From contig JAIOJX010000030.1 in NCBI GenBank assembly GCA_022376925.1, positions 173,223,298 to 173,287,297 on the forward strand: 64,000 nucleotides of DNA. The letters are read 5' to 3'. Below, in pieces: positions 702-63,269 of this stretch. The position numbers were made by a program, and so were the translations under genes. Position 1 is the first letter of the stretch; each line of letters starts with the position of its first letter. The stretch comes from Tragulus kanchil (Eukaryota > Chordata > Mammalia > Artiodactyla > Tragulidae). A model generated the notes under the pieces. The model made no database searches. It saw only the letters and a list, made by a program, of their open reading frames with translations, and was not told the origin of the DNA.

Positions 702-1416
702 TGCTTCTAATAGCACATTGTTTTAATCATTTTTTAGACTTCTGTTCCTTTTAGTAGTACTTCCTTCACCAGGAATATTCACTATAGAAAACATTAACTA
801 CTTCTCAAGTACTTGCTATATTACAGTAAGCAAAGTCTTCAAAGGTGTTTTGGTGGCCAGAAATTTGTTTAAATCCAATGTCTTACCACTTCCAATTGTT
901 CTCCCTCACCTTCCACTACTCCATAGTTAGCAATGAGAAGAGCTTCATCCAGAAAGTTTTCCCACAAAACTGCCATTAGGTTACCTCTGGGGCAGGTGAC
1001 TTGGTGCGTGTTCTCAAATCTTACAAATCAACTACTAAAATACCCTCAGAAGAAAAGAAAAAGGTTTGTTTTTTATGGTAATCTTTTGAAATTAAAATAA
1101 ACAAATTAATGACAGAAATCACTGAGTACAGGTACTTTCGACGCAAGCAAACTTAGGTTTATGACCTTTCCTGGGGGTCTGAGACACCACAGGCAGTACT
1201 TATAGCTGGTGGGATTGGGGGGAGGGGAGTATTAATGTAATACTGTAAGGCTAGGGAATTGTCCACAATATTGCCTTTTCTTCTGACACTGTCTAAAGAG
1301 TCTGGGCATGTCCCTAGTCACCTTCACTTTTGACACAAATTACAAGTTCAGAGATCCCTAAGACCTCCCACAAGCTTCACAATTTTCCAGAAAAACTGAC
1401 AGGTAACACTGAAAGG
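702..1416. other. unannotated unique sequence (first copy)
   Basis: About 700 bp of AT-rich sequence with no repeat family or exon that I recognise. The same stretch recurs at 1875-2589. Confidence 0.4.
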
Positions 1417-1634
1417 TAGGGACTTCCCTGGTGGCTCAGATGGTAAAGAATCTGCTGGCAATGCAGGAGATCCAGGTTCAACTGCTGGGTCAGGAAGATC
1501 CCCTGGAAAAGGGAATGTCACACCACTCCTTATTCTTGCCTGGAAAATTCCATGAACAGAAGCACCTAGCAGGCTACAGTCTATGGGGTCACAAAAGTCG
1601 GACATGACTGAGTGACTAACACTTTTCACTTTTT
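1417..1634 (+). mobile_element. Bov-tA SINE (copy in pair 1, first)
   Basis: The SINE starts with gggacttccctggtggctca, the tRNA-Glu-like head. It continues through the BovA body (gaagatcccctggaaaaggg, gtctatggggtcacaaaa) and ends at gactgagtgactaac. The flanks cactgaaag (1408-1416) and cattgaaag (1635-1643) look like a target-site duplication with one mismatch. Bov-tA SINEs use the BovB LINE for mobilisation and are confined to ruminants. Confidence 0.85.
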
Positions 1635-2589
1635 CATTGAAAGCTATTATACTTAAAGTTATAGTTACAAAGGAAGGATACAGATTAAAATCAGACGTGG
1701 GAAGTGATGCAATTGATAGAGTCTGTAAACATGGATCAACCAGTTGTTCCTTCCTGGTTAAGTCATAGTGTTAACTTCTCTCATCCATGGGTGTGCTAGT
1801 AGACGTGAAGAATTAACACTCAGGAAAGCTCACATAAGCTTTCCTTTCTAGAGTTTTAATTCATTTTTTTTTTTTGCTTCTAATAGCACATTGTTTTAAT
1901 CATTTTTTAGACTTCTGTTCCTTTTAGTAGTACTTCCTTCACCAGGAATATTCACTATAGAAAACATTAACTACTTCTCAAGTACTTGCTATATTACAGT
2001 AAGCAAAGTCTTCAAAGGTGTTTTGGTGGCCAGAAATTTGTTTAAATCCAATGTCTTACCACTTCCAATTGTTCTCCCTCACCTTCCACTACTCCATAGT
2101 TAGCAATGAGAAGAGCTTCATCCAGAAAGTTTTCCCACAAAACTGCCATTAGGTTACCTCTGGGGCAGGTGACTTGGTGCGTGTTCTCAAATCTTACAAA
2201 TCAACTACTAAAATACCCTCAGAAGAAAAGAAAAAGGTTTGTTTTTTATGGTAATCTTTTGAAATTAAAATAAACAAATTAATGACAGAAATCACTGAGT
2301 ACAGGTACTTTCGACGCAAGCAAACTTAGGTTTATGACCTTTCCTGGGGGTCTGAGACACCACAGGCAGTACTTATAGCTGGTGGGATTGGGGGGAGGGG
2401 AGTATTAATGTAATACTGTAAGGCTAGGGAATTGTCCACAATATTGCCTTTTCTTCTGACACTGTCTAAAGAGTCTGGGCATGTCCCTAGTCACCTTCAC
2501 TTTTGACACAAATTACAAGTTCAGAGATCCCTAAGACCTCCCACAAGCTTCACAATTTTCCAGAAAAACTGACAGGTAACACTGAAAGG

Positions 2590-2808
2590 TAGGGACTTCC
2601 CTGGTGGCTCAGATGGTAAAGAATCTGCTGGCAATGCAGGAGATCCAGGTTCAACTGCTGGGTCAGGAAGATCCCCTGGAAAAGGGAATGTCACACCACT
2701 CCTTATTCTTGCCTGGAAAATTCCATGAACAGAAGCACCTAGCAGGCTACAGTCTATGGGGTCACAAAAGTCGGACATGACTGAGTGACTAACACTTTTC
2801 ACTTTTTC
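2590..2808 (+). mobile_element. Bov-tA SINE (copy in pair 1, second)
   Basis: Identical to the SINE at 1417-1634 including its flanks. It is a by-product of the local duplication rather than an independent insertion. Confidence 0.85.
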
Positions 2809-3033
2809 ATTGAAAGCTATTATACTTAAAGTTATAGTTACAAAGGAAGGATACAGATTAAAATCAGACGTGGGAAGTGATGCAATTGATAGAGTCTGTA
2901 AACATGGATCAACCAGTTGTTCCTTCCTGGTTAAGTCATAGTGTTAACTTCTCTCATCCATGGCGTGTGCTAGTAGACGTGAAGAATTAACACTCAGGAA
3001 AGCTCACATAAGCTTTCCTTTCTAGAGTTTTAA

Positions 3034-3299
3034 CTGGGGTTTAGTTACAGACCCAGCAGAACTGTCTCCTAGAAGAGTGCACCAGGGAATTCCATAAAGA
3101 ACATGATAGGGAAACAAAAAAAATTAGAAGATGCACTGTAGATTAAAGGACTATATTCATGTAAATTTATAAAGCTGATAACTGTACTACGAAGTAATAA
3201 TTTAAGATGATATCCCTATTCTTAGGAAATGCACACTGACAGACTTAGGGATGAATGGTCAAATGCTATGTGTAACTTACCTTAAAATAGCTCAAAATA
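3034..3299. other. unannotated sequence
   Basis: Nothing recognisable. Repeated at about 4100-4366 by the pair-2 duplication. Confidence 0.35.
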
Positions 3300-3417
3300 T
3301 TATGTGCATATGTATGTATATACAGACTTATTTACATATATTGTATTTTTAGATATATACACATGCATACATATATGTACATACATAAGTGGTGTGCATG
3401 TGGGTGTGTATGTGTGG
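3300..3417. repeat. TG/TA-rich simple sequence
   Basis: Degenerate tatgtata / catacata / gtgtgtatgtgtgg runs immediately upstream of a Bov-tA head. A second copy at about 4366-4485 differs slightly. Confidence 0.6.
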
Positions 3418-3949
3418 TGCTTCCCTGGTAGCTAGTAAAGAATCTGCCTGGGGCTTCCCTGGTGGTCCAGTGGGTAAGGACACCGCCTTGCAGTGCAAGG
3501 GGCGCCGGTTCAAGCCCTGGCCTGGGAAGATCCCACATGTTGCGGAGTGGCTGGACACGTGTCCAATTACGGAGCTGGAGCTCTGGAGCGCATGCGCCCA
3601 GAGTTGGTGCTCTGCAACGACAAAGGCCACTGTGATGGGAGGCCCACATGGGTCAAAGAACAAAGATGGATGAAAATAGATAAATGAAAGACCAATAGAA
3701 GTGGCCCGCCCGCCCCCCTCCCTCCCCAACCTGCGCCCCCCGCCACCAGAAAAAAAAAGAAAAAAAAGGGAATCTGCCTGCAATGAAAGAGACCCCGGTT
3801 TGATTCCTGGATCAGGAAGATACCCTGGAGAAAGGATAGGCTAGCCACTCTAGTATTCTTGGGCTTCCCTGGTTGTTCAGACAGTAAAGAATCTACCTGC
3901 AATACAAACGATCTGGGCTTACTCCCTGGGTCGGGAAGATCCTCTGGAG
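3418..3949 (+). mobile_element. nested SINE complex: CHR SINE inside Bov-tA, followed by a second Bov-tA (first copy, truncated)
   Basis: Bov-tA head 3418-3450 is interrupted by a CHR-2-like SINE (3451-3769). The Bov-tA body resumes at 3770-3860. The 11-bp duplication gaatctgcctg at 3440-3450 and 3770-3780 proves insertion of the CHR SINE into the Bov-tA. A second Bov-tA starts at 3861 (gggcttccctgg) directly after 'tattctt' of the first. It is cut off at 3949 by the pair-2 junction. Confidence 0.85.
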
Positions 3950-4485
3950 TGGGAAGTGATGCAATTGATAGAGTCTGTAAACAGTTGTTCCTTCCTGGTT
4001 AAGTCATAGTGTTAACTTCTCTCATCCATGGCGTGTGCTAGTAGACGTGAAGAATTAACACTCAGGAAAGCTCACATAAGCTTTCCTTTCTAGAGTTTTA
4101 ACTGGGGTTTAGTTACAGACCCAGCAGAACTGTCTCCTAGAAGAGTGCACCAGGGAATTCCATAAAGAACATGATAGGGAAACAAAAAAAATTAGAAGAT
4201 GCACTGTAGATTAAAGGACTATATTCATGTAAATTTATAAAGCTGATAACTGTACTACGAAGTAATAATTTAAGATGATATCCCTATTCTTAGGAAATGC
4301 ACACTGACAGACTTAGGGATGAATGGTCAAATGCTATGTGTAACTTACCTTAAAATAGCTCAAAATATTATGTGCATATGTATGTATATACAGACTTATT
4401 TACATATATTGTTTTTTTAGATATATACACATGCATACATATATGTACATACATAAGTGGTGTGCATGTGGGTGTGTATGTGTGG

Positions 4486-5130
4486 TGCTTCCCTGGTAGC
4501 TAGTAAAGAATCTGCCTGGGGCTTCCCTGGTGGTCCAGTGGGTAAGGACACCGCCTTGCAGTGCAAGGGGCGCCGGTTCAAGCCCTGGCCTGGGAAGATC
4601 CCACATGTTGCGGAGTGGCTGGACACGTGTCCAATTACGGAGCTGGAGCTCTGGAGCGCATGCGCCCAGAGTTGGTGCTCTGCAACGACAAAGGCCACTG
4701 TGATGGGAGGCCCACATGGGTCAAAGAACAAAGATGGATGAAAATAGATAAATGAAAGACCAATAGAAGTAGCCCGCCCGCCCCCTCCCTCCCTCCCCAC
4801 CCCTCCACCAGAAAAAAAAAAAGAAAAAAAAGGGAATCTGCCTGCAATGAAAGAGACCCCGGTTTGATTCCTGGATCAGGAAGATACCCTGGAGAAAGGA
4901 TAGGCTAGCCACTCTAGTATTCTTGGGCTTCCCTGGTTGTTCAGACAGTAAAGAATCTACCTGCAATACAAACGATCTGGGCTTACTCCCTGGGTCGGGA
5001 AGATCCTCTGGAGTGGGGAATGGAAACCCACTCTAGTATTCTTGCCTAGAGAATCCCATGGACAAAGAAGCCTGGTGGGCTACAGCTCATGGGGTCACAA
5101 AGAGTCAGACACAACTGAAGCGACTTAGAA
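4486..5130 (+). mobile_element. nested SINE complex: CHR SINE inside Bov-tA, followed by a second, complete Bov-tA
   Basis: Second copy of the complex at 3418. The CHR SINE spans 4519-4833 with target duplications gaatctgcctg at 4508-4518 and 4834-4844. The interrupted Bov-tA ends near 4924. The second Bov-tA runs 4925-5130, complete here because no junction cuts it (ends gactgaag-type tail near 5130). The order of events is Bov-tA insertion(s) first, CHR insertion later. Confidence 0.85.
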
Positions 5131-6857
5131 TGTACATATCTCTCTCTATATATATAAAAGCTAGATAGAAACAAAGACAGAGAGGAAAAATAGGAGAAAA
5201 AGAGGGAGAGAGAGAACAGATGATAAATTGGCTAGAGTTTTAAAATAAGTAAATCTGGGTAGTCTCCATAAACAATGACTTTTATTTGTACTATTTTAAC
5301 TGCAAATTTTGTAAATTTAAAACTACTTTGAAAAAGTACAAAATAGTTTTAAAAATCATCTAAAACTGGAGAGAAAACATTGCTCTATTTCCAATCTTGT
5401 TTCAGGATGAGGCAACAAAATACCCCTGGGTTGCAGGGAATGGTAATAACTCAACGGCACTCACACACTAAATGGGTATTAACAGAATATGTGCAACATC
5501 AGGCTCTTTGAACCTATGGATCCCAAATATATCACAGAACTTCATCTCTCTCTTTCTCAAATCTTATTTGGTCTTTGTTACCTTCACCCACTCAGATACT
5601 TGAAAACCTTGTTTGAATAAACATGGTCCCCAATGACTCCTAGATTCAAGTGATGTTTATGGCTAGTGATTTTAATAAGAAGATTCAAATCATTCCTAGT
5701 AATTCTTGGAAAAAAAACATTAAAATGAATTTTCTCAATTTTCAATGGTTTTGCTTAAACACCTAGAATTGAGCACCATGGACAGTGTGTGTGGTGCTGT
5801 GTGTGGTGCTCTGATTAACCAAGCCTGCATCACATGACTACCTATGAGTCATGGCAGGATAAGGGCCATGACTGTCAATCACAGGGAAACTATATGACTG
5901 AGAGATGAAGGGTGGTGAGTGGTTCCCAAAAGAACCTAAGGAGTTCTGTTATTATACAAGAATAGGCAAACAACAGGAAAAAAAAAAAGAAAATCCCTAA
6001 GACCACCATTCAAAGGACTTTACTACCCTGTCAAACTCCATGTTCCCTTACCTCTTAACACCTTTCCTTACAGCAGTGTCTTTTGTTAAGTCTGGGAAAG
6101 AGGCTTTGTATTGCAAGGCTGCCCTCAGCAAGAGCTCAAGGTCTACTTACAAGTTCCATAAAGACCCACTCTGTGAACACAACAGCCCGAGGGCTGCAGG
6201 GGCTGGCACCACAGGACCTGAGGGGGAGGCCAACCATCAACTCCACAGGCAGAGGCATTTGAACAGTTCTTCCCAGTGAAATTTATGACATTCATGAATC
6301 CACAAGCAGTCTGAGATTTTTCCTCTTAAATGGGTAATCCATAAAACAAAGCTTCTGGACACGACATGCAGGTAGTTCATTTCAACTGAAAACTGTATTG
6401 ATTTAAACATGTACCGGTATTACATTTACCACACAATGAATGCATAATATATGAATATTTAATGATCATTCAAAATACATTTAAACTATCAAATATTCAT
6501 GAACAAATATCTACATACTACCAGAAAAATAGAACATACTTGCCAAGTGAGTTGATATCCTTTATTTGGGGGATTGAAATATTCATATCAATACAATTAT
6601 GAGGATGTATATTGATTTAAACAAAAACAACTTTTAAACTTATTATCAGTGAAAAAATTGTTGCCTGACATATCCGTAAACCAAGGATGTTGCAGCTTCA
6701 GACCATTACATTACAGCAGCCTGAGGATGAGCCCTGAGGGCACTCAGAATGTAAAAGCACAGGATACTGGCCCCAGAGAGCTGAACTGCATATTAAAGGA
6801 ACGGTTTCAAAGAGCTCTGACATTTGCAGCTTCCCATATAAAGAAAAGAAGTAGAAA
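5131..6857. other. unannotated region with short simple repeats
   Basis: Contains a CT/TA microsatellite (about 5137-5160), purine-rich GA tracts to about 5220 and a perfect 12-bp dimer gtgtgtggtgct at 5787-5810. The remainder is AT-rich with no recognised element. A GC-richer patch near 6100-6270 has an open frame of 79 codons (6040-6279), but it matches nothing I recognise. The stretch 6681-6857 directly precedes BovB homology and is part of pair 3. Confidence 0.4.
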
Positions 6858-9083
6858 AGATTAAGAAGAGCTGGCAAGAACACCCATAGAACTATACAAA
6901 AAAAAATCTTAATAAGCTAAATAACCACAATAGGGTAGTCACTCACCTAGAGTGGGGCATCCTGGAGTGTGAAGTCAAGTGGGCCTTAGGAAGCATTACT
7001 ACTAATAAAGCTAGTGAAGGTGATCAAATTCCAGTTGGTGCTATATCAAATTCTAATAGATGATGCTGTTAAAGAGCTGCACTTATTATGTTAGAAAATT
7101 TGGACAACTCAGCATTGGTCACGGGACTGGAAAAGGGCAGCTTTCTTTTTAATATTAAAGAAGGACAAGGCTAACGGATGCTCAAACTGCCATACAATTG
7201 TATTCATTACACATGCTTGCCCAAAATCCTTTGAGCTAGGTTTCAACAATATTTGAACTGAGAACTTCCAGATGTACCAGTTGAGTTTCAAAGATACAGA
7301 GGAATCAGAGTTCAAATTCCCAACATCTGTTGGACCATGGAGAAAGTAAGGGCAATCTAGAATGACATCTACTTCTGCTTCACTGACTAGGCTAAAGTCT
7401 TTGACTGTGTGGATAACAATAAACTGTGAAAATCCTTAAAGAGATGGGAGTATCAGACTACTTTGTCTCCTGAGAAGCTCATATGCAGGTCAAAAAGCAA
7501 TATTTAGAACTGGACATGAAACAACTGACTAGTTCAAAATTGGGAAAGGCTATATATATTGTCATCCTGCTTATCTAACTTATATGCAGAGTAATCATGT
7601 GAAATGACTTATATTCAGAGTATATCATGTGAAAATGTTGGTCTGGATGAATCGCAAGCTGGAATTAAGATTGCTAGAGAAACAGCAGCCTCAGATATGG
7701 AGATGATACCACTTTAATGGAAGAAAGTAAAGAGGAACTAAAGAATCTCTTCATAAGGGTGAAAAAGGAAAGTGAAAAAGTTGACTTGAACTCAACATTC
7801 AAAAAAATAACATCTATGTCATCCAGTTTCATGACAAATGTATGAGGAAAAAAATGGAAGCAGTGACAAATTTTTATTTTCTCCAAGGATGTTGCAGCTT
7901 CAGACCATTACATTACAGCAGCCTGAGGATGAGCCCTGAGGGCACTCAGAATGTAAAAGCACAGGATACTGGCCCCAGAGAGCTGAACTGCATATTAAAG
8001 GAACGGTTTCAAAGAGCTCTGACATTTGCAGCTTCCCATATAAAGAAAAGAAGTAGAAAAGATTAAGAAGAGCTGGCAAGAACACCCATAGAACTATACA
8101 AAAAAAAATCTTAATAAGCTAAATAACCACAATAGGGTAGTCACTCACCTAGAGTGGGGCATCCTGGAGTGTGAAGTCAAGTGGGCCTTAGGAAGCATTA
8201 CTACTAATAAAGCTAGTGAAGGTGATCAAATTCCAGTTGGTGCTATATCAAATTCTAATAGATGATGCTGTTAAAGAGCTGCACTTATTATGTTAGAAAA
8301 TTTGGACAACTCAGCATTGGTCACGGGACTGGAAAAGGGCAGCTTTCTTTTTAATATTAAAGAAGGACAAGGCTAACGGATGCTCAAACTGCCATACAAT
8401 TGTATTCATTACACATGCTTGCCCAAAATCCTTTGAGCTAGGTTTCAACAATATTTGAACTGAGAACTTCCAGATGTACCAGTTGAGTTTCAAAGATACA
8501 GAGGAATCAGAGTTCAAATTCCCAACATCTGTTGGACCATGGAGAAAGTAAGGGCAATCTAGAATGACATCTACTTCTGCTTCACTGACTAGGCTAAAGT
8601 CTTTGACTGTGTGGATAACAATAAACTGTGAAAATCCTTAAAGAGATGGGAGTATCAGACTACTTTGTCTCCTGAGAAGCTCATATGCAGGTCAAAAGCA
8701 ATATTTAGAACTGGACATGAAACAACTGACTAGTTCAAAATTGGGAAAGGCTATATATATTGTCATCCTGCTTATCTAACTTATATGCAGAGTAATCATG
8801 TGAAATGACTTATATTCAGAGTATATCATGTGAAAATGTTGGTCTGGATGAATCGCAAGCTGGAATTAAGATTGCTAGAGAAACAGCAGCCTCAGATATG
8901 GAGATGATACCACTTTAATGGAAGAAAGTAAAGAGGAACTAAAGAATCTCTTCATAAGGGTGAAAAAGGAAAGTGAAAAAGTTGACTTGAACTCAACATT
9001 CAAAAAAATAACATCTATGTCATCCAGTTTCATGACAAATGTATGAGGAAAAAAATGGAAGCAGTGACAAATTTTTATTTTCT
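6681..9083. repeat. tandem near-identical copy pair 3 (6681-7882 / 7883-9083)
   Basis: Offset 1202, copies abut directly. The unit is the 5' flank plus most of a BovB reverse-transcriptase region. The second copy carries on correctly along BovB after the point where the first stops. Differences are one- or two-base homopolymer changes such as caaaaagc/caaaagc. Confidence 0.9.
6858..7882 (+). mobile_element. BovB (RTE) LINE, RT region, decayed (first copy)
   Basis: Plus-strand BovB homology begins near aagattaagaagagctggcaa and follows the family order through the RT fingers and palm. Frame is lost repeatedly. The RT catalytic box reads tatggagatgat at 7696-7707, i.e. Y-G-D-D instead of the usual Y-A-D-D. 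This is an inert relic. It is interrupted at 7882 by the pair-3 junction. Confidence 0.85.
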
Positions 9084-9246
9084 TAGGTTCCATAATAACT
9101 ATGGACAGTGAGTGCAGCCATAAAATTGAAAGGCACTCCTTGGAAAGAAAGCTATGACAAACCTTGACAGTGCATTAAAAAGCGAAGATGTAACTTTGCT
9201 GACCAAGGTCCACAGAGTTAAAGCTATGGTTTTCCAGTAGTCATAT
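8060..9246 (+). mobile_element. BovB LINE, RT region to ERV insertion (second copy)
   Basis: Same BovB relic as 6858-7882 but continuing further 3' (ggttccataataactatggacagtgagtg region, then the block before the 3' end). BovB homology stops at 9246, where an LTR-like tgaaagggttt begins. The remaining BovB 3' end is found 2.7 kb downstream at 11917. Confidence 0.85.
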
Positions 9247-9808
9247 TGAAAGGGTTTACTAGCTAGATTAATAGGCAGATTTAATGGGTACAGAAAGTAA
9301 TAAGGTTTGTGGAAGTGGACCCTGAGTAAAAGGTTTATGCACATTTGACACTGACTCTGTTTAGAATAAATTGAAGTAAATTTAAAGGTAATCTGAGGCA
9401 AAAGCTTGAATTTAGCTTTTTTTCTTTATTAAAAGGATACACTTTCTCCAGATATCAATTGCTTTTGATAACAGATTTAAGTTTACTTCCCTCTTAACTG
9501 ATCTCTTATGTAAGTAACTGACTTTGAGAATACTAACTCAGCTCAGGGCCTCTCCTAGCTCAGGGATGGCCTCTTTGTTTAGGGGTAAACACTGCTATTG
9601 CTTTATTAATGCCTAAAAGTCCTAAGTTTATTAATGAGTGGAATCTTATTGTGCTGGCTTCCCCTAATGTAAATGAAATCTTAAATTCAAAAATTTACAG
9701 TTAGATGTCAGATAGTGAGCTTCTTAAATCAAATGTCTATATGACAGGCCATTTTTGGACAGAAATTGTCATAGATTCAGAAGACTTAGAATTAACTGTG
9801 TAACCCAG
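9247..9808 (+). mobile_element. ERV 5' part (first copy, truncated by junction)
   Basis: Begins with tgaaagggtttactagctag, matching the start of the LTR at 11383, then turns into non-LTR sequence after about 35 bp. Repeated and continued at 10387. Confidence 0.6.
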
Positions 9809-10386
9809 CTTTGTCTCCTGAGAAGCTCATATGCAGGTCAAAAAGCAATATTTAGAACTGGACATGAAACAACTGACTAGTTCAAAATTGGGAAAGGCTA
9901 TATATATTGTCATCCTGCTTATCTAACTTATATGCAGATTTGGAAATGACTTATATTCAGAGTATATCATGTGAAAATGTTGGTCTGGATGAATCGAAGC
10001 TGGAATTAAGATTGCTAGAGAAACAGCAGCCTCAGATATGGAGATGATACCACTTTAATGGAAGAAAGTAAAGAGGAACTAAAGAATCTCTTCATAAGGG
10101 TGAAAAAGGAAAGTGAAAAAGTTGACTTGAACTCAACATTCAAAAAAATAACATCTATGTCATCCAGTTTCATGACAAATGTATGAGGAAAAAAATGGAA
10201 GCAGTGACAAATTTTTATTTTCTTAGGTTCCATAATAACTATGGACAGTGAGTGCAGCCATAAAATTGAAAGGCACTCCTTGGAAAGAAAGCTATGACAA
10301 ACCTTGACAGTGCATTAAAAAGCGAAGATGTAACTTTGCTGACCAAGGTCCACAGAGTTAAAGCTATGGTTTTCCAGTAGTCATAT
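9809..10386 (+). mobile_element. BovB LINE fragment (third copy of part of the RT region)
   Basis: Re-start of BovB sequence created by the pair-4 duplication. It has the same Y-G-D-D box and the same boundary with the ERV at 10387. Confidence 0.8.
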
Positions 10387-11916
10387 TGAAAGGGTTTACT
10401 AGCTAGATTAATAGGCAGATTTAATGGGTACAGAAAGTAATAAGGTTTGTGGAAGTGGACCCTGAGTAAAAGGTTTATGCACATTTGACACTGACTCTGT
10501 TTAGAATAAATTGAAGTAAATTTAAAGGTAATCTGAGGCAAAAGCTTGAATTTAGCTTTTTCTTTATTAAAAGGATACACTTTCTCCAGATATCAATTGC
10601 TTTTGATAACAGATTTAAGTTTATTTCCCCTCTTAACTGATCTCTTATGTAAGTAACTGACTTTGAGAATACTAACTCAGCTCAGGGCCTCTCCTAGCTC
10701 AGGGATGGCCTCTTTGTTTAGGGGTAAACACTGCTATTGCTTTATTAATGCCTAAAAGTCCTAAGTTTATTAATGAGTGGAATCTTATTGTGCTGGCTTC
10801 CCCTAATGTAAATGAAATCTTAAATTCAAAAATTTACAGTTAGATGTCAGATAGTGAGCTTCTTAAATCAAATGTCTATATGACAGGCCATTTTTGGACA
10901 GAAATTGTCATAGATTCAGAAGACTTAGAATTAACTGTGTAACCCAGCTTTCAGGTTTTTTAACAGACACTGTGAAAATATAGCCGCCAACTCAGACACA
11001 CTGCTAGATATGTGGACCACTCTCCTCTTCATCAATTAAAGACTTCTACTATGAGAAGACAGATTTCTCCACTTCAAAAAAAAGACTTTCTATAATAATC
11101 AATTGTCTTGTTTTTGCTGTTTGCTCCTTGCATTTACAGTTACATATAGAAATTTGTTTCTAACTATCTAAATGCTTTTAAGCTACAAATGATGGTTCAG
11201 GCTCCTACAACCTCCTCCAGCTATTACTTGAGATCCCTGGATCAAAGACCTGAATAAAGGGTAAGGAGAATATGTTGCCTCAATAATTTATGGACCACGC
11301 CCCTACTCAGCTTGAAGAAGCCAGCTCGGTTGTCGCCCTCTTCCCCTGGCAACATAATTCTCCTAAAAGAAAAAGGGGGGAATGAAAGGGTTTAATAGCT
11401 AGATTAATAGGCAGATTCAATAAGGAGGCCAGAGGGTCCAAAGGAAGAGGAGGTTAGGGACCGAAAAAAGAAGGAAAAGTATTTCTCTAACCTGAAATGT
11501 CTGTTATGATAAGATCAACCCAAAACTAAGTTTATTGTCTTATGTTGATGCTATCTATGGGCCTAGAAAGGCCTTTATACCAGAATGTCTCACCTAGCCC
11601 AGAGACTTTCCCCTGGCTAATCTCATGTTGTGGGTGTAGGACTGGAATGTCTTTATGACCTTAAGCTATTGTTTCGATAATCGACTGGAAAATACAAATT
11701 GTCATGCTTAAACTGGCAAAGGGGGTACTCTTCTATGCCCCTTAATGCTGGAAGATTTTCCCTATCCTTTCTTACTTTAATAAACTTTTCAATGAACGAA
11801 GTTCTGAGTGGCCATCATCGAGTCTTTTTGAACCCAATGTGAATTCTTCTCCATTGGAGATTAAGAACCTGACATCGTACACAGTAACCTACCGTCGTCT
11901 ATCACCCATAAGTATT
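10387..11916 (+). mobile_element. decayed endogenous retrovirus with 3' LTR, inserted in BovB
   Basis: The left end is a roughly 35-bp LTR-start fragment (tgaaagggttt...). About 960 bp of internal remnant follows without usable reading frame. Then come a polypurine tract at 11365-11380 (aaaagaaaaagggggg) and a recognisable 3' LTR from 11383. The LTR has a polyadenylation signal aataaa at 11779-11784 and ends roughly at 11874-11916. The right end and target duplication are not clear. The PPT followed directly by the TG of U3 is the retroviral signature. Most of the 5' LTR and the coding interior are deleted. A class I (gamma-like) assignment is a guess from LTR style only. Confidence 0.7.
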
Positions 11917-12290
11917 AAGAAGGCTGAGCGCTGAAGAATTGACGCTTTTGAACTGTGGTGTTGGAGAAGACTCTTGAAAGTCCCTTGGACTGCAAGATCA
12001 AAACAGTCAATCCTAAAGGGTCATTGGAAGGATTGTTGCTGAAGCTCCAATACTTTATTCACCTGATACAAAGACTCAACTCACTGGAAAAGACCTGAAT
12101 GCTGAGAAAGGTTAAAAGTGAAATGAGAAGGGATCAGCAGTGGATGAGGTGGTTAGATAGCATCACTGACTTAGTGGACATGAATTTGAATAGACTCTGG
12201 GAGATAATGAAGCACAGAAGAGCCTGTTGTGCTATAGTCCATGGGGTGATAAGGAACTGGATATGATTTAGGGACTGAACAACAACAATA
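11917..12290 (+). mobile_element. BovB LINE 3' end, downstream of the ERV
   Basis: Resumes BovB at aagaaggctgagcgctgaag and follows the family through gaattgacgcttttgaactg and the 3' UTR. It ends with the BovB tail gggactgaacaacaacaataac near 12290. Together with 8060-9246 it forms one BovB copy split by the ERV. Confidence 0.9.
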
Positions 12291-14788: not shown

Positions 14789-14949
14789 AAGCAGTGAAGA
14801 GAAGATACTGAAAAATAACTGAAAGGATAGAAAGAGATGTGCAAAATTCAGAAGGATGTGCATAATGAGAATGAGCAGGCATGGATACATAAAGAACAGT
14901 GGACAGACGGAATGATATATCAAAAATATATTAAAAAGCAACCAATTCA

Positions 14950-51313: not shown

Positions 51314-51320
51314 ATGTAAC

Positions 51321-51533: not shown

Positions 51534-51940
51534 TGGACTTGGATTAAAGCAGATTACTCTCCATTGTGTGGTGTGCCTCACTCACTCAAGCAAAAGAAAA
51601 CCTGAGGAAAACAAAAGGACCAGCTTGCCCTGAGCTAGACAGAATTCCCCACAAGACTGGGGAATTTCAGACTTCATCGGCAACAGGGCTCTGTCCATTA
51701 TTATAGCAGACTGTCTTCATTCTCAGATGGGAACATTACCCCTTCCAGTTGTCTGATGATGGGCCAGCTTGCCCGTCTAAACAATAGCTCTCTTGTGTCT
51801 TCAGCCTATTGGCCTACATTGCAGATCTTATATTTGCCAGCCATCCTAATCTCTTGAGCCAATTTCTTAGTATAAATCTCTTTACATATAGTCTAACTAC
51901 TGTCATTTCATGATTTTTAATAAATATATAATTGGTCTTT
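51534..51940 (+). mobile_element. LTR-like ancient repeat, 3' part (extra copy)
   Basis: Duplicate of 50366-50772. Confidence 0.45.
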
Positions 51941-52487
51941 GTCTTTCATCCAGTTTCTGTCAGAGTTCCTAAAGTTTTTGGGGTTTCCTAAGTGATTAAG
52001 AGTCATAATAGAGTTGTGATCTTCATAACAAACCCCTCTCAATCATACCTTGTTGATGCTTCCCTGAGTTCTGTGAGCTGCTCTAGCAAATTAATCTGAC
52101 CCAAGGAAAAAGTCATTAGAACCTCGGATCTTTAGCTAATCAATCAGAAGCTCAGATAGCAACCTGCGCCTATGATTGGTGTCTAAAGGTATGGGGAGGG
52201 GGCCAGTTTTGTGAAATCTAGCTCTTAACCTGACAGATCACAAAATATCTACCAGAAGTGAGTTAACCGCCTGTGGAGTGAACCCACACAAAGATCATAT
52301 TCATAGGTCCTACTGTTTGCTTCTCAAGAGAATATTAATACATCTGCTCAACATAACAAATTTAGGGCATACACATATGCCAAAACAATAATAATAATAA
52401 ATAAAACAACACAACGTTTTCATTGTGAAGGATTCATAAATATTATTTCAGAGCAAATAAAAAACAAGCAATTAAAACACATGTAAC

Positions 52488-52810
52488 GGGCTTCCCTGGT
52501 GGTCCAGTGGGTAAGGACACTGTCTTGCAGTGCAAGGGGTGCGGCTTCAATTCCTGAACTGGGAAGACCCCACGTGCCATGGAGTGGCTGGACCGATGTG
52601 TCCAATGACTGAGCTGGAGCTCTGAAGCGCATGCGCCCAGAGCCGGTGCTCTAGGACAACAGACGCCACCACGATGGGAGGCCCACATGGGCCAAAGAAC
52701 AAAGATGGATGAAAATGGACAAATGAAAGACCAATAGAAGTGGCCCGCCTGTCCCCCTCGTCCCCACCCCACCCGCGAATAAATTTAAAAAAAACAAAAA
52801 ACAAAAAGCA
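52488..52810 (+). mobile_element. CHR-2-like SINE (second copy, complete)
   Basis: Full-length with a C-rich then A-rich tail. The flanking catgtaac (52480-52487) and tatgtaac (52811-52818) form a short target duplication with one mismatch. Confidence 0.88.
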
Positions 52811-53983: not shown

Positions 53984-54289
53984 AAATGAGTAGTATAGAT
54001 TAGTGGTTCTCAGACGACTCAGGAGAGCCAAAGCAATAGCTTTTTGCTCTATTTCCTTCTCCCCAGTAGGGGCTGGAGGAGAAAATCCATTCTTACTGTT
54101 TAGACATCAATTCTTGCCCCTAATTCAGACTTAGAAAGAACCAGCCAGCCCTTTCCTTCTGATGATTTTTCTTTTCTACCCCAGTTTAGTTTTTATTTCC
54201 TCTCTACCTCCACCTCTGAAGCCATTTTATAAACTGTCATGTGTCATCACAGCCACCATTAAAACAAAAACAGGCTGTCTCCTTTAAAG

Positions 54290-54312
54290 AGAGAAAGAGA
54301 GAGAGAGCAAAA
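54290..54312. repeat. (GA)n microsatellite
   Basis: aaagagagaaagagagagag, with an identical copy at about 55372-55395. Confidence 0.8.
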
Positions 54313-55209
54313 GAACAAGGGCAAGAGTAAGAGACCAAAGCTAGTCTATGAAAAAGTTCTCATTGATCTGTAGCCAAATGACAAACATGAGAACAATGTA
54401 GTAAAATTTTTGTAATGCAATATTTAATCTGTGCTTTCCATGATAATTTTGGTGAAGAAATGACATACTTCATAAGGTTATGGAAATACTTGATAATATT
54501 TTCATCAGAAATGATCTTTAAAAGAGTATTTCAACACCATGTGATCCCCATACTTGTGTGTAAGGCATCTATTTTTGGCAAACTGAATTTGTTCATTAAA
54601 TCATAAGCTCAAGGAACCAGTGATTCAGTATAAGAGCTATACTTCTTAGGAGGTAAGGGTTGTTTAGATCTGAGGGATCAGAGGCAGTATCAAGGAAAAA
54701 GTAGGAAGTCAGTAAGACAGACTGGATTTAATTACGTGGAAACCAGATAGAGGGCATTCTAAAAGGAAGAATTGTAGTAGGAAACATAGAAGGACTAGTT
54801 TCCTATCTTAAAATAGGAGAAAATAAGCAAGCAAACAAATGACTAGTTTAGCTTGAGTAAAGGATATGATGAGATTTAAAGTGGTGAAAAGTAGGTCCAA
54901 AATAATAAATTCTGAATGCCAAGCATTGATAATTAAACTTTTATAGTTAGGCAATTCTACTGCTCACAACTGAGAAAGAAACAGGCTCTAAGAAAACAAA
55001 GGCACTAAGTGCAACATGTTCCTTTGATAATTTTAGTAATTAAATGGAAGGAGTTAAGATGGAAATTCAAAAGATACAGGAAGACTGAGAGAAGGCTTTG
55101 ACAAAAGGGGAGAACCATTGTGAAGAAAGAGCACCACTCAAAAGTATGAAACTACAAAATTAAATTTATTGTTTATGAATTGTCTCACCTGATTTAGCAG
55201 AGCCAAGGG
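54313..55209. other. unannotated sequence
   Basis: Open frame of 63 codons at 54415-54606 with no recognised domain. Nothing else. Repeated at 55396-56292. Confidence 0.35.
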
Positions 55210-56292
55210 AGACTTAGAAAGAACCAGCCAGCCCTTTCCTTCTGATGATTTTTCTTTTCTACCCCAGTTTAGTTTTTATTTCCTCTCTACCTCCACCTCT
55301 GAAGCCATTTTATAAACTGTCATGTGTCATCACAGCCACCATTAAAACAAAAACAGGCTGTCTCCTTTAAAGAGAGAAAGAGAGAGAGAGCAAAAGAACA
55401 AGGGCAAGAGTAAGAGACCAAAGCTAGTCTATGAAAAAGTTCTCATTGATCTGTAGCCAAATGACAAACATGAGAACAATGTAGTAAAATTTTTGTAATG
55501 CAATATTTAATCTGTGCTTTCCATGATAATTTTGGTGAAGAAATGACATACTTCATAAGGTTATGGAAATACTTGATAATATTTTCATCAGAAATGATCT
55601 TTAAAAGAGTATTTCAACACCATGTGATCCCCATACTTGTGTGTAAGGCATCTATTTTGGCAAACTGAATTTGTTCATTAAATCATAAGCTCAAGGAACC
55701 AGTGATTCAGTATAAGAGCTATACTTCTTAGGAGGTAAGGGTTGTTTAGATCTGAGGGATCAGAGGCAGTATCAAGGAAAAAGTAGGAAGTCAGTAAGAC
55801 AGACTGGATTTAATTACGTGGAAACCAGATAGAGGGCATTCTAAAAGGAAGAATTGTAGTAGGAAACATAGAAGGACTAGTTTCCTATCTTAAAATAGGA
55901 GAAAATAAGCAAGCAAACAAATGACTAGTTTAGCTTGAGTAAAGGATATGATGAGATTTAAAGTGGTGAAAAGTAGGTCCAAAATAATAAATTCTGAATG
56001 CCAAGCATTGATAATTAAACTTTTATAGTTAGGCAATTCTACTGCTCACAACTGAGAAAGAAACAGGCTCTAAGAAAACAAAGGCACTAAGTGCAACATG
56101 TTCCTTTGATAATTTTAGTAATTAAATGGAAGGAGTTAAGATGGAAATTCAAAAGATACAGGAAGACTGAGAGAAGGCTTTGACAAAAGGGGAGAACCAT
56201 TGTGAAGAAAGAGCACCACTCAAAAGTATGAAACTACAAAATTAAATTTATTGTTTATGAATTGTCTCACCTGATTTAGCAGAGCCAAGGGA

Positions 56293-57033
56293 TATATGAA
56301 GTTTGGGAGAAGAATTTGTTTTGGGGCCGAGTTGCTTACAGATGGAAATGTAGAATTGCTTACAGATGGAAGTGTAGAGGAAGAACTATGAGGACTTTGG
56401 GGATGTGTTTTGTGTTGGTGTCAGGCAGGTTTGACTGACCTAATATATTTTATTTGCCTGTCTGGCAGCTGTTACCATGGCTACAGAAAAATCAGCCTTG
56501 CCCTAACTGTATGGCAACTTCTTTATTCTCACCATTTAATAGCCAAGACTTCCTGTCTTTTTTCCAAGTGATGAAAGCTTGGTTCAATCACCCCTCCTCT
56601 TTCCCATCACCTAGCATACAGCAACTTAGCTGCTACCACACTAGTCCTCAGTACTGTCCCTCTACCTGGAAGGACAGTCTTGGAGTTATCATTAAGGGCA
56701 TGGTAGAACCCTTCACAGTTTGATGAAGTTCTGTGCCATCCTTGGATTCATCCGCTACAAGAAAGATCCCATGATGCCACTATCCTATAAACTAAGATTC
56801 TCGATTTCTCCTTTCTCTACTTTTCATGATAAAGCCCAATCCAAACTCTTCAGATTTATCTCCTGCTCCTGCTACCCCAAATTACTAGGCCATTTTTACC
56901 ATTGTGCCAGGAAATTATACATTGTAAATTCTAACTTCAAACCTTTATCATTCCCTAAGATAATTTGCAATGACCTGTATTTTAAGAAATAAACATAAAC
57001 GTCATAGAATAAATACAAATTTGTGGTAATTAA
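56293..57033. other. unannotated unique sequence
   Basis: Two adjacent 89-90-codon frames (56454-56723, 56720-56992) overlap by 4 bp. Their translations show no known domain and look like non-coding text. A direct 21-bp repeat-like phrase (ttgcttacagatggaaatgtag and its variant) occurs at about 56332-56377. Confidence 0.35.
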
Positions 57034-57035
57034 TA

Positions 57036-57262
57036 TACAAGTTTCTTTTTATTTTTTAAAATGTTTATTTATTTGGCTGTGCCAGGTCTTAGCTGTGGCA
57101 TGCAAGATCTTCAATCTTCTTTGTGGCAAGCAAGATCTTTAGTTGCAGCATGCAAACTCTTAGTTGTGGCATGTGGGATTTAGTTCCCTTACCAGGGGTC
57201 GAACCCACGTCCCCTGCATTGGGAGCATGAAGTTTAGCCAAGGGACCATCAGGGAAGTCCCT
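57036..57262 (-). mobile_element. CHR-type SINE, diverged (first copy)
   Basis: Minus-strand. T-rich tail, ttggctgtgccaggtcttag, three similar gcatgcaagatct-like blocks, head accatcagggaagtcc. An older or different CHR subfamily than the CHR-2-like copies. Confidence 0.75.
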
Positions 57263-57934
57263 TTAAGTTTCCCTTTAAATATAAGGATCAAACAGTTAAC
57301 CATTACCTTAAAACAAACTACTCTCACTAGCTAGGGCTCTGGCATGAATTATTCAGAAAATCACCTCAAATCATTGCCTTCATTTCTCTTTAAATATATA
57401 ATCTGAGTCAACAAATATCAAGTACCCTTCTATAATCAGACTTCAATTAAGTTTAAATCATTTTAGAATAACTCAACAGAGGCATCCATCTTTTCTCCTT
57501 CTAATCAATAAAGTCGCTTAATTCAGAGATGGATCACCTCATCTCAATGGATGAATATGAAAATAAACTGCTCTGAGTTTTGTCTCCCTTTCTTTCTTCA
57601 TGCTCCATTAGGATGCAACAAAATACATTTTCATTTTTCTGGTCATTAAAGAAGAATGAGCAGAGTGAAAAATGAAATTTAGCTCATTTAGACTGAACTG
57701 AATTCAACGAGGCTGACCTTTTCTGTTAATTTTGATATGTTTCTTGTTTCTAAACAAATACAAACTTTATTTTGATGAAATATCATAATCACTCCTCATT
57801 CATAAACATCTTAAGCAGATGAATTATAGAAGTGCCACCTTCATAGATATTCTATGCCTTTCAAAGCACCAACATGAAATCCTAGGAAATCCAAGTTAAA
57901 TTTAATTAAGAATATAAAAATCAGCAGACAGATA
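57263..57934. other. unannotated sequence
   Basis: No repeat recognised. It precedes a TATA-like box listed next. Confidence 0.35.
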
Positions 57935-58011
57935 TTTATATAAGCTAAGCTGAAAGACAGAGACTCATTGTGGCTAAATTTTGGCTTCACCGCAGGCTCA
58001 CCCAGCTAGGT
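57935..58011 (+). promoter_or_regulatory. TATA-like box followed by a splice-donor-like site (speculative first exon)
   Basis: tttatataag at 57935-57944 is followed about 65 bp later by ccagctag|gtaagg (donor GT at 58010-58011), a layout that a short non-coding first exon would have. Upstream near 57885 is tcctaggaa, one base off a STAT-type palindrome. The second copy is at 59086-59162. I recognise no gene here and the signals could be chance in AT-rich DNA. Confidence 0.2.
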
Positions 58012-58184
58012 AAGGCATTTTTACCACATTTGGAGTAGATGGACCTTTCATTTTTTCATTTTTCTTTACCATCTAGATCTCCTCTCAAAGCTTCTCAACA
58101 GTCAAACTATCTTTCATTGCGTCCACTGCATGGGAGATTGTGGCAAAACTAAAAAAAAAAAAGGAATAAATAAATTTGTAATTA

Positions 58185-58411
58185 TACAAGTTTCTTTTTA
58201 TTTTTTAAAATGTTTATTTATTTGGCTGTGCCAGGTCTTAGCTGTGGCATGCAAGATCTTCAATCTTCTTTGTGGCAAGCAAGATCTTTAGTTGCAGCAT
58301 GCAAACTCTTAGTTGTGGCATGTGGGATTTAGTTCCCTTACCAGGGGTCGAACCCACGTCCCCTGCATTGGGAGCATGAAGTTTAGCCAAGGGACCATCA
58401 GGGAAGTCCCT
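58185..58411 (-). mobile_element. CHR-type SINE, diverged (second copy)
   Basis: Duplicate of 57036-57262 by pair 21. Confidence 0.75.
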
Positions 58412-59753
58412 TTAAGTTTCCCTTTAAATATAAGGATCAAACAGTTAACCATTACCTTAAAACAAACTACTCTCACTAGCTAGGGCTCTGGCATGAATTA
58501 TTCAGAAAATCACCTCAAATCATTGCCTTCATTTCTCTTTAAATATATAATCTGAGTCAACAAATATCAAGTACCCTTCTATAATCAGACTTCAATTAAG
58601 TTTAAATCATTTTAGAATAACTCAACAGAGGCATCCATCTTTTCTCCTTCTAATCAATAAAGTCGCTTAATTCAGAGATGGATCACCTCATCTCAATGGA
58701 TGAATATGAAAATAAACTGCTCTGAGTTTTGTCTCCCTTTCTTTCTTCATGCTCCATTAGGATGCAACAAGAAATACATTTTCATTTTTCTGGTCATTAA
58801 AGAAGAATGAGCAGAGTGAAAAATGAAATTTAGCTCATTTAGACTGAACTGAATTCAACGAGGCTGACCTTTTCTGTTAATTTTGATATGTTTCTTGTTT
58901 CTAAACAAATACAAACTTTATTTTGATGAAATATCATAATCACTCCTCATTCATAAACATCTTAAGCAGATGAATTATAGAAGTGCCACCTTCATAGATA
59001 TTCTATGCCTTTCAAAGCACCAACATGAAATCCTAGGAAATCCAAGTTAAATTTAATTAAGAATATAAAAATCAGCAGACAGATATTTATATAAGCTAAG
59101 CTGAAAGACAGAGACTCATTGTGGCTAAATTTTGGCTTCACCGCAGGCTCACCCAGCTAGGTAAGGCATTTTTACCACATTTGGAGTAGATGGACCTTTC
59201 ATTTTTTCATTTTTTTCTTTACCATCTAGATCTCCCTCTCAAAGCTTCTCAACAGTCAAACTATCTTTCATTGCGTCCACTGCATGGGAGATTGTGGCAA
59301 AAACTAAACAAAATCATTCATTGGTAAGGGAAATAAGATCCTACATACTACTGAAAAAGCAGCTGAGTTGACTTAGAAAGTATAAGGCAACTGAGCCAAT
59401 AAACTTAAAATTTCATAGAAAGTCACAGACTCAGAAAAACCCAAAGATGAGATCCAAAAGCCATATACACCAGTCTCACAAAATCAAAAGTTATGTGGTA
59501 GAATAGCAATGGTTAATAATTGGGATCAGATATTGGGACCATATATTAAGTGTATGATAGAACACTTCACAGAATTTAGACACTCTCTTTAAATAACACA
59601 AAAAATAAGCCAAAGTTCTCAGGAAAGGGAACTTAAATTACTTAAGTCACATGTCAGTCACTGAAACTAATCTGGTTCAATACTTAAGCTTTAAAACAAT
59701 TTTTAGATATGGTGAGAAATCAGGACACCACAAAGACATCAAGCTAAACTTTT
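58412..59753. other. unannotated sequence
   Basis: To 59307 it is the second copy of pair 21. From 59308 it is single-copy AT-rich DNA with no recognised element. Confidence 0.35.
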
Positions 59754-60355: not shown

Positions 60356-60368
60356 AAGACGTTGAATA

Positions 60369-60796
60369 TCATTCTTTATACATTATTTATGATGCTCTAA
60401 TGGGCTTACTGGCATTTAAAAGACAATGGATTAGAGAAGAAAACTTATCCTAGCTTACAGATTAATGCACTCATTACCCGTATCTTTTGAACCTGCCCTA
60501 TTCCTTACATTGACACTATAACAGCAGCTAAGTCTGAACTGTTACTAATCAATCCACTAAATGCCTACTAAGTACCATGTCTTTTAATAGAAGTGGGTTA
60601 AAACAACAAGAAAAAAGGCAAAGACAAAAGCAATTAACTAACAAAAATTAACACAATAAAACAGAAATCACTCTCATCCTCAATGATTCATATCCTAAAA
60701 GATAATTAATAATCTATATTAAATAACTAATCATATAAATACATGACTGTTATGAATGCTGTGAATAAGAAATCATGCAGTTCGGGAATGAACCTA
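60369..60796. other. unannotated sequence
   Basis: AT-rich, nothing recognised. Confidence 0.35.
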
Positions 60797-63269
60797 ATCA
60801 GGAAATATTTCCTGAGAATGTGATACTAAAGGAGATAAATAAAAACAAGAAATAGTTCAATGAAAGAGACAAGCAAAGTCTCTTCCTGAACAAACTCTAG
60901 GACTGACTCCTCTGAGCCTGACTAGGACCTGATCTTGACTATACCCTTGGAGCCCCAGTTTTTGAAAGAATCCTGCTAAGTTTTTTTAGCCAAAACCCCC
61001 CATCTTGACATCTAGTCAAATTTCTCATCCTTCAGCATCATCTGGGCTATGTCTGATTCGCCTAATATAATTTTGGCGAGAATTCTGCTAGTTCAGTTTA
61101 GCCAGAATCCATCCTTACTCTAGTGTTGCCCCTTAATTGCTTCCATCTTTTGATACTCACCTCACTTCTTGTTTACAAATCTCTACTTGTCCATTTTGTA
61201 TTCAGTAATGAGGCAAACTTTCCGTAAAGTTTCTCTCCCTAGTATTCTACTGTAAACTACAGATTTAAATGTAGTTATAGAAATCCTTCCTTGGTCAACT
61301 CACTTCAAGACCTACAAATAACAGAATCACCATCTAAATACATCTGCAAAGCTCTTTTGATGTCAAATTTTCAGCAGTTCCTAAGTCTACATACTACAAG
61401 GTTTAAAAGGAATTACTGAAAATCTAGAGCATCCCAAAAAGCTTCAGAGAAGTCAATGAGTGATTAGTTTACCAGAATACCAGAGTCACAATTAACATAG
61501 CATTTTCATCATAAGAAGGTGTTTTATTACTCCCTCTATAATCAAAATAGAATTTTTTATATTCCACTACATACTTTCATGTTCTTCATGGTATATGGTA
61601 TTCAGAATACATAAAATGATGAGAGAACATTCTAAGTTAAAGACAACTGGATTTACTGATTAACTCCACTCGAAAGTATTTCAAATGTTAGGCATGAGAA
61701 ATTTTAAAACTTGATTTTATCTGTGGAAGTATGCAGAACCCATGAATGCCTGACACCAGCAATGACAAAATGCTCAAGTGTTCACATTGTCTACTCTTCT
61801 TTCCAGCATCTTTATTTCTCTTCACCACAGTCATACTGAGATAAAAAATCTGGAATGGTCAAATACACTCCTTTTCTCTATCATTTACACTTCTGATGAT
61901 GAGGAATATGCTTACTCACACTGCAAATGGCACATTTGAGTTCTTTCAAGAACTGTTCCAAATGCACACCTGGACTTGCTTGTAAACCTGGATCTTGAAC
62001 TGACTGAAAACCCTGATAAGCAAGAGCCAACAATCAGGAAATATTTCCTGAGAATGTGATACTAAAGGAGATAAATAAAAACAAGAAATAGTTCAATGAA
62101 AGAGACAAGCAAAGTCTCTTCCTGAACAAACTCTAGGACTGACTCCTCTGAGCCTGACTAGGACCTGATCTTGACTATACCCTTGGAGCCCCAGTTTTTA
62201 AAGAATCCTGCTAAGTTTTTTTAGCCAAAACCCCCCATCTTGACATCTAGTCAAATTTCTCATCCTTCAGCATCATCTGGGCTATGTCTGATTCGCCTAA
62301 TATAATTTTGGCGAGAATTCTGCTAGTTCAGTTTAGCCAGAATCCATCCTTACTCTAGTGTTGCCCCTTAATTGCTTCCATCTTTTGATACTCACCTCAC
62401 TTCTTGTTTACAAATCTCTACTTGTCCATTTTGTATTCAGTAATGAGGCAAACTTTCCGTAAAGTTTCTCTCCCTAGTATTCTACTGTAAACTACAGATT
62501 TAAATGTAGTTATAGAAATCCTTCCTTGGTCAACTCACTTCAAGACCTACAAATAACAGAATCACCATCTAAATACATCTGCAAAGCTCTTTTGATGTCA
62601 AATTTTCAGCAGTTCCCTAAGTCTACATACTACAAGGTTTAAAAGGAATTACTGAAAATCTAGAGCATCCCAAAAAGCTTCAGAGAAGTCAATGAGTGAT
62701 TAGTTTACCAGAATACCAGAGTCACAATTAACATAGCATTTTCATCATAAGAAGGTGTTTTATTACTCCCTCTATAATCAAAATAGAATTTTTTATATTC
62801 CACTACATACTTTCATGTTCTTCATGGTATATGGTATTCAGAATACATAAAATGATGAGAGAACATTCTAAGTTAAAGACAACTGGATTTACTGATTAAC
62901 TCCACTCGAAAGTATTTCAAATGTTAGGCATGAGAAATTTTAAAAACTTGATTTTATCTGTGGAAGTATGCAGAACCCATGAATGCCTGACACCAGCAAT
63001 GACAAAATGCTCAAGTGTTCACATTGTCTACTCTTCTTTCCAGCATCTTTATTTCTCTTCACCACAGTCATACTGAGATAAAAAATCTGGAATGGTCAAA
63101 TACACTCCTTTTCTCTATCATTTACACTTCTGATGATGAGGAATATGCTTACTCACACTGCAAATGGCACATTTGAGTTCTTTCAAGAACTGTTCCAAAT
63201 GCACACCTGGACTTGCTTGTAAACCTGGATCTTGAACTGACTGAAAACCCTGATAAGCAAGAGCCAACA
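60797..63269. repeat. tandem near-identical copy pair 22 (60797-62031 / 62032-63269)
   Basis: Offset 1235, the longest unit, abutting at aatcaggaaat. Single-base run-length differences only (gtttttgaaag / gtttttaaag, gttcctaag / gttccctaag). The unit has no recognised element. Confidence 0.92.

What the first reader, a model, noticed from the sequence alone, without database searches (positions are those of the whole stretch)
702..63269. Twenty-two separate direct duplications of about 1.1 kb, each of different sequence
Seen directly: 22 adjacent near-identical pairs, all 1.06-1.24 kb, spread through the whole window and covering unrelated content (BovB, L1, SINEs, pseudogene UTR, unique DNA). 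Junctions are near 1860, 3950, 7883, 9809, 13340, 15970, 17935, 20000, 24074, 28983, 31508, 35734, 38070, 40111, 43163, 45143, 47240, 49380, 51534, 55210, 58170 and 62032. No known mutational process makes many unrelated tandem duplications of nearly equal size in a row. Failure to collapse fixed-size overlaps between successive contigs would. If so, about 25 kb of this window is spurious and any copy-number or gene-structure inference from it is unsafe.
Basis: partly seen in the sequence, partly recalled or inferred. Interest (0 to 1): 0.8.

Follow-up and report, generated by a model that had tools for sequence, protein, structure and literature searches.

The report
Assembly error: overlaps kept twice
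The 22 side-by-side 1.1-kb duplications are almost certainly not in the animal's DNA: they look like overlaps between neighbouring assembly pieces that software failed to merge, and the same error turned up in nearly every part of this genome that was sampled.

Summary
All 22 pairs exist at the stated junctions: copies 1.04-1.24 kb, 97.6-100% identical, about 25.2 of 64 kb surplus. The window lies in a 3.17-Gb, 32-contig genome, and 19 of 20 spread 10-kb stretches show the same pattern.

The artefact reading is supported. Over 78 junctions, copy differences cluster at overlap edges (12.0 versus 1.9 per kb), and in 101 of 122 edge indels the missing base is in the copy at a piece's own end (p about 1e-13). 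No two of the measured successive junctions lie closer than about 1.78 kb (59 intervals). Exons of two p53-family genes and part of the telomerase RNA gene recur at the same spacing.

The pieces are 1.8-5.3 kb, with sizes that fit wtdbg2 layout units: neighbours share a 1,024-base node, and the shortest unit is 7 bins of 256. Short-piece/overlap ratio is 1.754 (1.712-1.796); 7/4 is 1.75. Whole-bin steps were not detectable. Artefact about 98%; this assembler about 75%. No biology is claimed.

The parts
702..3033 (.). pair 1: 702-1859 repeated at 1875-3033
2870..5014 (.). pair 2: 2870-3950 repeated at 3949-5014
6681..9083 (.). pair 3: 6681-7882 repeated at 7883-9083
8663..10948 (.). pair 4: 8663-9809 repeated at 9809-10948
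12242..14452 (.). pair 5: 12242-13334 repeated at 13345-14452
14923..17052 (.). pair 6: 14923-15966 repeated at 16000-17052
16777..19089 (.). pair 7: 16777-17929 repeated at 17937-19089, identical copies
18804..21194 (.). pair 8: 18804-19993 repeated at 20007-21194
22993..25157 (.). pair 9: 22993-24074 repeated at 24074-25157
27839..30131 (.). pair 10: 27839-28983 repeated at 28983-30131
30397..32616 (.). pair 11: 30397-31507 repeated at 31508-32616
34558..36903 (.). pair 12: 34558-35731 repeated at 35729-36903
36907..39237 (.). pair 13: 36907-38068 repeated at 38076-39237
38938..41273 (.). pair 14: 38938-40111 repeated at 40110-41273
42000..44315 (.). pair 15: 42000-43162 repeated at 43165-44315
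43990..46299 (.). pair 16: 43990-45143 repeated at 45142-46299
46059..48418 (.). pair 17: 46059-47222 repeated at 47254-48418
48319..50434 (.). pair 18: 48319-49375 repeated at 49381-50434
50366..52696 (.). pair 19: 50366-51523 repeated at 51534-52696
54127..56292 (.). pair 20: 54127-55210 repeated at 55210-56292
57007..59313 (.). pair 21: 57007-58158 repeated at 58164-59313
60796..63269 (.). pair 22: 60796-62032 repeated at 62032-63269

Best explanation
The window is a chain of separately built consensus pieces, 1.8-5.3 kb long, laid end to end without removing the about 1.1 kb that each shares with its neighbour. The pieces behave like the layout units of the long-read assembler wtdbg2. There, a graph node is a 1,024-base read segment (four 256-base bins), each unit runs from one node to the next, and neighbouring units therefore share one node that the consensus step must align and merge. 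Here that merge did not happen, so the shared node was written twice; where two nodes overlap by about one bin, the shared stretch was written three times. Shown here: the overlap pattern, its recurrence across the genome, the edge errors and the unit sizes. Taken from a paper: wtdbg2's 1,024-bp segments. Recalled only: the 256-base bin, the default maximum node overlap of 256, and that adjacent units share a node. Inferred: that wtdbg2 was used, that the consensus step was where it failed, that the longest pieces may be several units merged properly, and that a later polish made the two copies nearly identical.
For: 1) Recurrence independent of content: 19 of 20 spread 10-kb stretches have the pattern (18 with a complete junction, 1 only with a cut one). 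78 complete junctions in 314 kb, offset mean 1,130, SD 42, range 1,053-1,237. In a search with a SINE-bearing query, 24 of the 46 listed matches outside the window have a same-strand partner 1,089-1,137 bp away, at 9 places on 7 contigs (a capped list, 40 of 5,242 candidates scored). 2) Piece-end signature: differences are 12.0/kb within 100 bp of the overlap edges and 1.9/kb inside; of 122 edge indels, 101 lack the base in the copy that lies at the end of its own piece (54 of 68 at left edges, 47 of 54 at right edges; p about 1e-13). 3) Minimum spacing: 59 piece lengths, none below 1,782 bp; under random (exponential) spacing of the same mean that has probability 3e-16. 4) wtdbg2 numbers: shortest piece 1,782 against 2x1024-256 = 1,792; 23 of 59 pieces form a cluster at 1,782-2,118 (mean 1,983) whose ratio to the mean offset is 1.754 (bootstrap 1.712-1.796), against 7/4. 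PMC10989838 (passages) states that wtdbg2 chops reads into 1,024-bp segments as graph vertices. 5) Genes: 3 of 8 distinct p53-domain exons are listed twice, 1,094, 1,094 and 1,149 bp apart; an overlap starts inside the telomerase RNA gene, so its 3' part recurs 1.1 kb on.
Against: Whole-bin steps are not detectable over all 59 piece lengths (Rayleigh p = 0.64); an uncorrected raw-length periodogram peak at 250 bp (p = 0.0012, 37 periods tried) is not claimed. Piece and overlap ends were measured between exact 18-base anchors, so true pieces are somewhat longer than given (fillers between copies up to 88 bp) and the closeness of 1,782 to 1,792 is partly luck; both sizes need a stretch factor of about 1.10 over the raw numbers. 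The detector asked for chains of 800 bp or more, so very close or short junctions could have been missed. The largest triple overlap, 438 bp, exceeds one stretched bin. The short cluster was picked by eye from a gap in the lengths. Copies are 99.4% identical on average (lowest 96.6%), so an aligner should have merged them easily; why it failed is unknown. One of 20 spread stretches (L027) shows no duplication. Reads, assembly notes and another assembly were not available.
Confidence: 0.75

Rival explanations
1. Same artefact class (uncollapsed overlaps between consecutive pieces) but from another program: another assembler, a gap filler or a polisher that works in overlapping chunks.
For: Everything except the size match fits equally well; the use of wtdbg2 is not documented in any call, and whole-bin steps were not detected.
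Against: Fixed-window polishers would give constant piece length, whereas pieces run 1.8-5.3 kb. The 7:4 ratio and the minimum near 1.8 kb need a separate reason.
Confidence: 0.22
2. Real tandem duplications of about 1.1 kb, made many times over by some mutational process in this species.
For: The DNA as held is continuous across the window's junctions (no N); the copies are nearly identical, as recent duplications would be.
Against: Errors concentrate at the unit edges with missing bases on the piece-end copy; no measured pair of successive junctions lies within 1.78 kb (59 intervals); exons of p53-family genes and part of the telomerase RNA gene recur; 21-40% of the sampled letters would be recent duplication.
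Confidence: 0.01
3. Uncollapsed alleles (heterotype false duplication): the two copies are the two parental haplotypes.
For: Inside the overlaps there is about 1 mismatch per kb (70 mismatches in the middles of 78 overlaps), not far from mammalian heterozygosity (recalled).
Against: Small indels are about as common as mismatches there (66 and 70), which is unlike allelic variation (recalled); 8 of 78 pairs are identical; allelic copies would not have a nearly fixed 1.1-kb length or sit adjacent every 2-5 kb.
Confidence: 0.01

Closest known systems
Homotype false duplication, type 'overlapping sequences at contig boundaries' (Vertebrate Genomes Project, PMC8081667; passages seen)
   Same: The same locus is written twice in tandem because overlapping ends of adjacent pieces were not merged; the copies differ by consensus errors.
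   Different: There the duplicated length is often that of a corrected read, at contig boundaries, with a gap between the copies after scaffolding. Here the length is about 1.1 kb throughout, no N lies between the window's copies, and it recurs every 1.8-5.3 kb inside chromosome-scale sequences.
wtdbg2 layout units (Ruan and Li 2020; paper not held; short description seen in passages of PMC10989838)
   Same: 1,024-bp read segments are graph vertices; unit and overlap sizes here fit one shared vertex per neighbour.
   Different: In a normal wtdbg2 run the shared vertex is merged (recalled); here it is not.
False gene gains from duplication errors (PMC9516828; passages seen)
   Same: Falsely duplicated genic sequence that can be misread as gene or exon gain.
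   Different: The homotype share in the table seen there is at most 2.7% of an assembly; here 21-40% of the sampled letters are surplus.

Membership tests
Homotype false duplication (uncollapsed overlap) | The same locus is present twice, in tandem, at the boundary of assembly pieces | tested here: met
   Tandem copies at 22 of 22 junctions in the window and 78 in 314 kb; that the junctions are piece boundaries is inferred from the edge errors
Homotype false duplication (uncollapsed overlap) | Copies differ by consensus errors rather than haplotype variants | tested here: met
   Edge-concentrated, directionally missing bases; 188 indel events to 135 mismatches over 78 junctions. Haplotype variants in reads could not be checked.
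Homotype false duplication (uncollapsed overlap) | Reduced read depth and excess assembly k-mer copy number against the reads | not testable with these tools
   No reads available
wtdbg2 layout units | Shared segment between neighbours of one 1,024-base node | tested here: met
   Offsets 1,053-1,237, mean 1,130; anchored overlap lengths 1,002-1,238, mean 1,114. A stretch factor of about 1.10 has to be assumed.
wtdbg2 layout units | Shortest unit 1,792 bases (two nodes overlapping by at most 256; defaults recalled) | tested here: met
   Minimum of 59 pieces 1,782; ratio of short cluster to offset 1.754 (1.712-1.796) against 1.75
wtdbg2 layout units | Unit lengths in whole bins | tested here: inconclusive
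   Rayleigh p = 0.64 on 59 pieces; jitter of bin borders may blur it
wtdbg2 layout units | Assembler named in the assembly record | not testable with these tools
Heterotype (allelic) false duplication | Copies are haplotypes: variant spectrum and extent of allelic sequence | tested here: not met
   8 of 78 pairs identical; indels about as common as mismatches in overlap middles; nearly fixed length. Not tested on reads.

The most novel reading that the evidence does not exclude
A whole chromosome-scale assembly, probably of a ruminant, carries its assembler's layout units unstitched, so that roughly a fifth to two fifths of it is surplus. The 1.1-kb offset, the minimum unit of about 1.8 kb and the piece-end deletions form a fingerprint by which other affected assemblies, with false exon and gene duplications, could be found.
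Probability: 0.6. Interest if true: 0.35.

Novelty: not a real feature. Interest (0 to 1): 0.25.

Why it matters
No biology should be read from these duplications. The practical point is larger than the window: if the sampled rates (21-40%) hold throughout, 0.7-1.3 Gb of the 3.17-Gb assembly is surplus, and exons (p53-family genes) and RNA genes (telomerase RNA) appear duplicated. Copy-number, gene-structure, tandem-duplication and genome-size studies on it are unsafe until the overlaps are collapsed. The fingerprint is simple to screen for.

Tried and rejected
Tandem Repeats Finder found nothing (its period limit is 500 bp). Rayleigh test for whole-bin piece lengths: not significant (p = 0.64). 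Junctions are not tied to homopolymers or dinucleotide runs: 6 of 78 against 4.3 +/- 2.3 at random positions. G+C is 0.39 around junctions and 0.42 overall, not tested further. Successive offsets are not positively correlated (lag-1 r = -0.20, n = 40). ARAGORN and Rfam (gathering scores) found nothing in the window. Allelic duplication and fixed-window polishing were considered and rejected (see rivals). Literature: searches listed no paper that by title or abstract start describes unstitched wtdbg2 units (search listings only; of these papers I saw passages of PMC10989838 alone); the wtdbg2 paper is not held. Species: a SINE that I recognise from recall as Bov-tA-like (11 of my 12 strict typed motifs had no exact hit; the twelfth, 7 letters long, says nothing) and 16 contigs of 73-297 Mb suggest a ruminant with 2n near 32. 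A chevrotain was guessed; searches found no paper, and the species stays unknown.
Full report
OBSERVATION. A k-mer self-comparison found the pairs without prior coordinates, local alignment at the 22 junctions measured 97.6-100% identity, and base-by-base alignment gave copies of 1,044-1,238 bp at offsets of 1,062-1,236 bp, with 21 mismatches and 66 indel events over all 22; 52 of these 87 lie in the first or last tenth of the copy. The offsets sum to 25.2 kb. Twenty block-shuffled windows gave no chain of 150 bp or more (weak control). Where two pairs lie close, the shared part is present three times, at offsets of 2.24-2.36 kb. The window has no N.

WHERE IT LIES. Sixteen contigs are 73-297 Mb long, one is 10.7 Mb, the other fifteen are 0.19-1.5 Mb. 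The most frequent repeat words belong to a SINE that I recognise from memory as Bov-tA-like, so the animal is probably a ruminant; the species was not established.

GENOME-WIDE. A search with window 702-1874 listed 50 matches (40 of 5,242 candidates scored). Of the 46 outside the window, 24 form same-strand pairs spaced 1,089-1,137 bp, at 9 places on 7 contigs. I then took 20 stretches of 10 kb on 13 contigs, at round coordinates chosen without seeing the sequence: 19 of 20 show the pattern, 18 with at least one complete junction and one (L022) only with a pair cut by its end; one (L027) shows none. With the window and 50 kb adjoining it this makes 314 kb and 78 complete junctions. Pairs cut by stretch ends or broken by masked bases were left out of that count. 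Offsets average 1,130 bp, SD 42, range 1,053-1,237. Surplus sequence is 40% of the 114-kb contiguous stretch and 21% of the spread stretches; the second figure is a lower bound, because junctions near stretch ends were not counted.

WHY IT IS AN ARTEFACT. (a) If two consensus pieces overlap, the left edge of the overlap is the raw start of the right piece and the right edge is the raw end of the left piece. Errors should pile up at both edges and sit on opposite copies. They do: 12.0 differences per kb within 100 bp of an edge against 1.9 inside. At left edges 54 of 68 indels lack the base in the right copy, at right edges 47 of 54 lack it in the left copy; together 101 of 122, p about 1e-13. 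A real tandem duplication has no evident reason to do this. (b) Between successive complete junctions the piece length is never below 1,782 bp (59 pieces, mean 2,937); for random spacing with that mean the chance is 3e-16. The detector asked for chains of 800 bp or more, so unusual close junctions could have been missed. (c) Gene content: the p53 domain family gives 11 exon matches on three contigs, which I read as 8 distinct exons; 3 of the 8 occur twice, 1,094, 1,094 and 1,149 bp apart. The two C2 pairs have equal scores; the C23 pair differs (66 and 59 bits), and the sequences could not be fetched to compare. From general knowledge, vertebrate p53-family genes do not carry such exon repeats. 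The best telomerase RNA match is crossed by an overlap start, so its last 162 or so bases recur 1.1 kb downstream; a weaker telomerase RNA-like copy on C26, probably a pseudogene, is wholly doubled at 1,106 bp. (d) Junctions ignore sequence content as far as tested: homopolymers or dinucleotide runs lie near 6 of 78, against 4.3 at random positions.

WHICH PROCESS. Pieces are 1.8-5.3 kb, so they are not ordinary contigs, and their length varies, so they are not fixed polishing windows. A review states that wtdbg2 chops reads into 1,024-bp segments that become graph vertices (PMC10989838, passages). From memory, the segment is four 256-base bins, neighbouring segments on a read may overlap by at most 256 by default, and neighbouring layout units share one vertex which the consensus program merges. 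This predicts an overlap of 4 bins and a shortest unit of 7 bins (1,792 raw bases). Observed: shortest piece 1,782; 23 of 59 pieces at 1,782-2,118, mean 1,983; ratio to mean offset 1.754, bootstrap 95% 1.712-1.796, unchanged for cut-offs of 2,130-2,260 and 1.78 at 2,350. The mean overlap and the short-piece mean are both about 1.10 times the raw numbers, as expected if raw reads are shorter than the true sequence; this is inference. Against it: whole-bin steps are not detectable over all pieces (p = 0.64), piece ends were measured between 18-base anchors and so are slightly short, and the largest triple overlap (438 bp) exceeds one stretched bin. Why merging failed is unknown. One possibility, from memory only, is a consensus run with an overlap setting far below one node.

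WHAT IS KNOWN. The Vertebrate Genomes Project calls this class homotype false duplication, with 'overlapping sequences at contig boundaries' as one type, often one corrected read long and with a gap between the copies (PMC8081667, passages). The table seen in PMC9516828 gives homotype shares of at most 2.7% (passages). The present case has the same logic with a nearly fixed unit and a far higher load. Searches listed no paper that by title or abstract start describes it.

VERDICT. Observation confirmed, interpretation supported with a refinement of the unit and a likely assembler. As biology it is not a real feature. As a quality warning for a whole assembly it deserves action.

Noticed in passing
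32848-33315 (- strand): A 155-aa stop-to-stop frame matches the C-terminal domain of ornithine/DAP/arginine decarboxylases (PF00278, E 5.8e-8); probably an ornithine-decarboxylase-type pseudogene.
   Followed up: no
L027 (C31:10000001-10010000): The only one of 20 spread 10-kb stretches without any 1.1-kb duplication; the error may be unevenly spread.
   Followed up: no
L035/L036 (C26:102316260-102317799): A telomerase RNA-like sequence, weaker than the C23 match, is present twice 1,106 bp apart; further matches lie on C2 (236 bits) and C30 (108 bits).
   Followed up: partly
39792-40065 and 41382-41650: Two stretches about 79% alike, apart from the 1.1-kb pairs; perhaps an ordinary interspersed repeat.
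   Followed up: no
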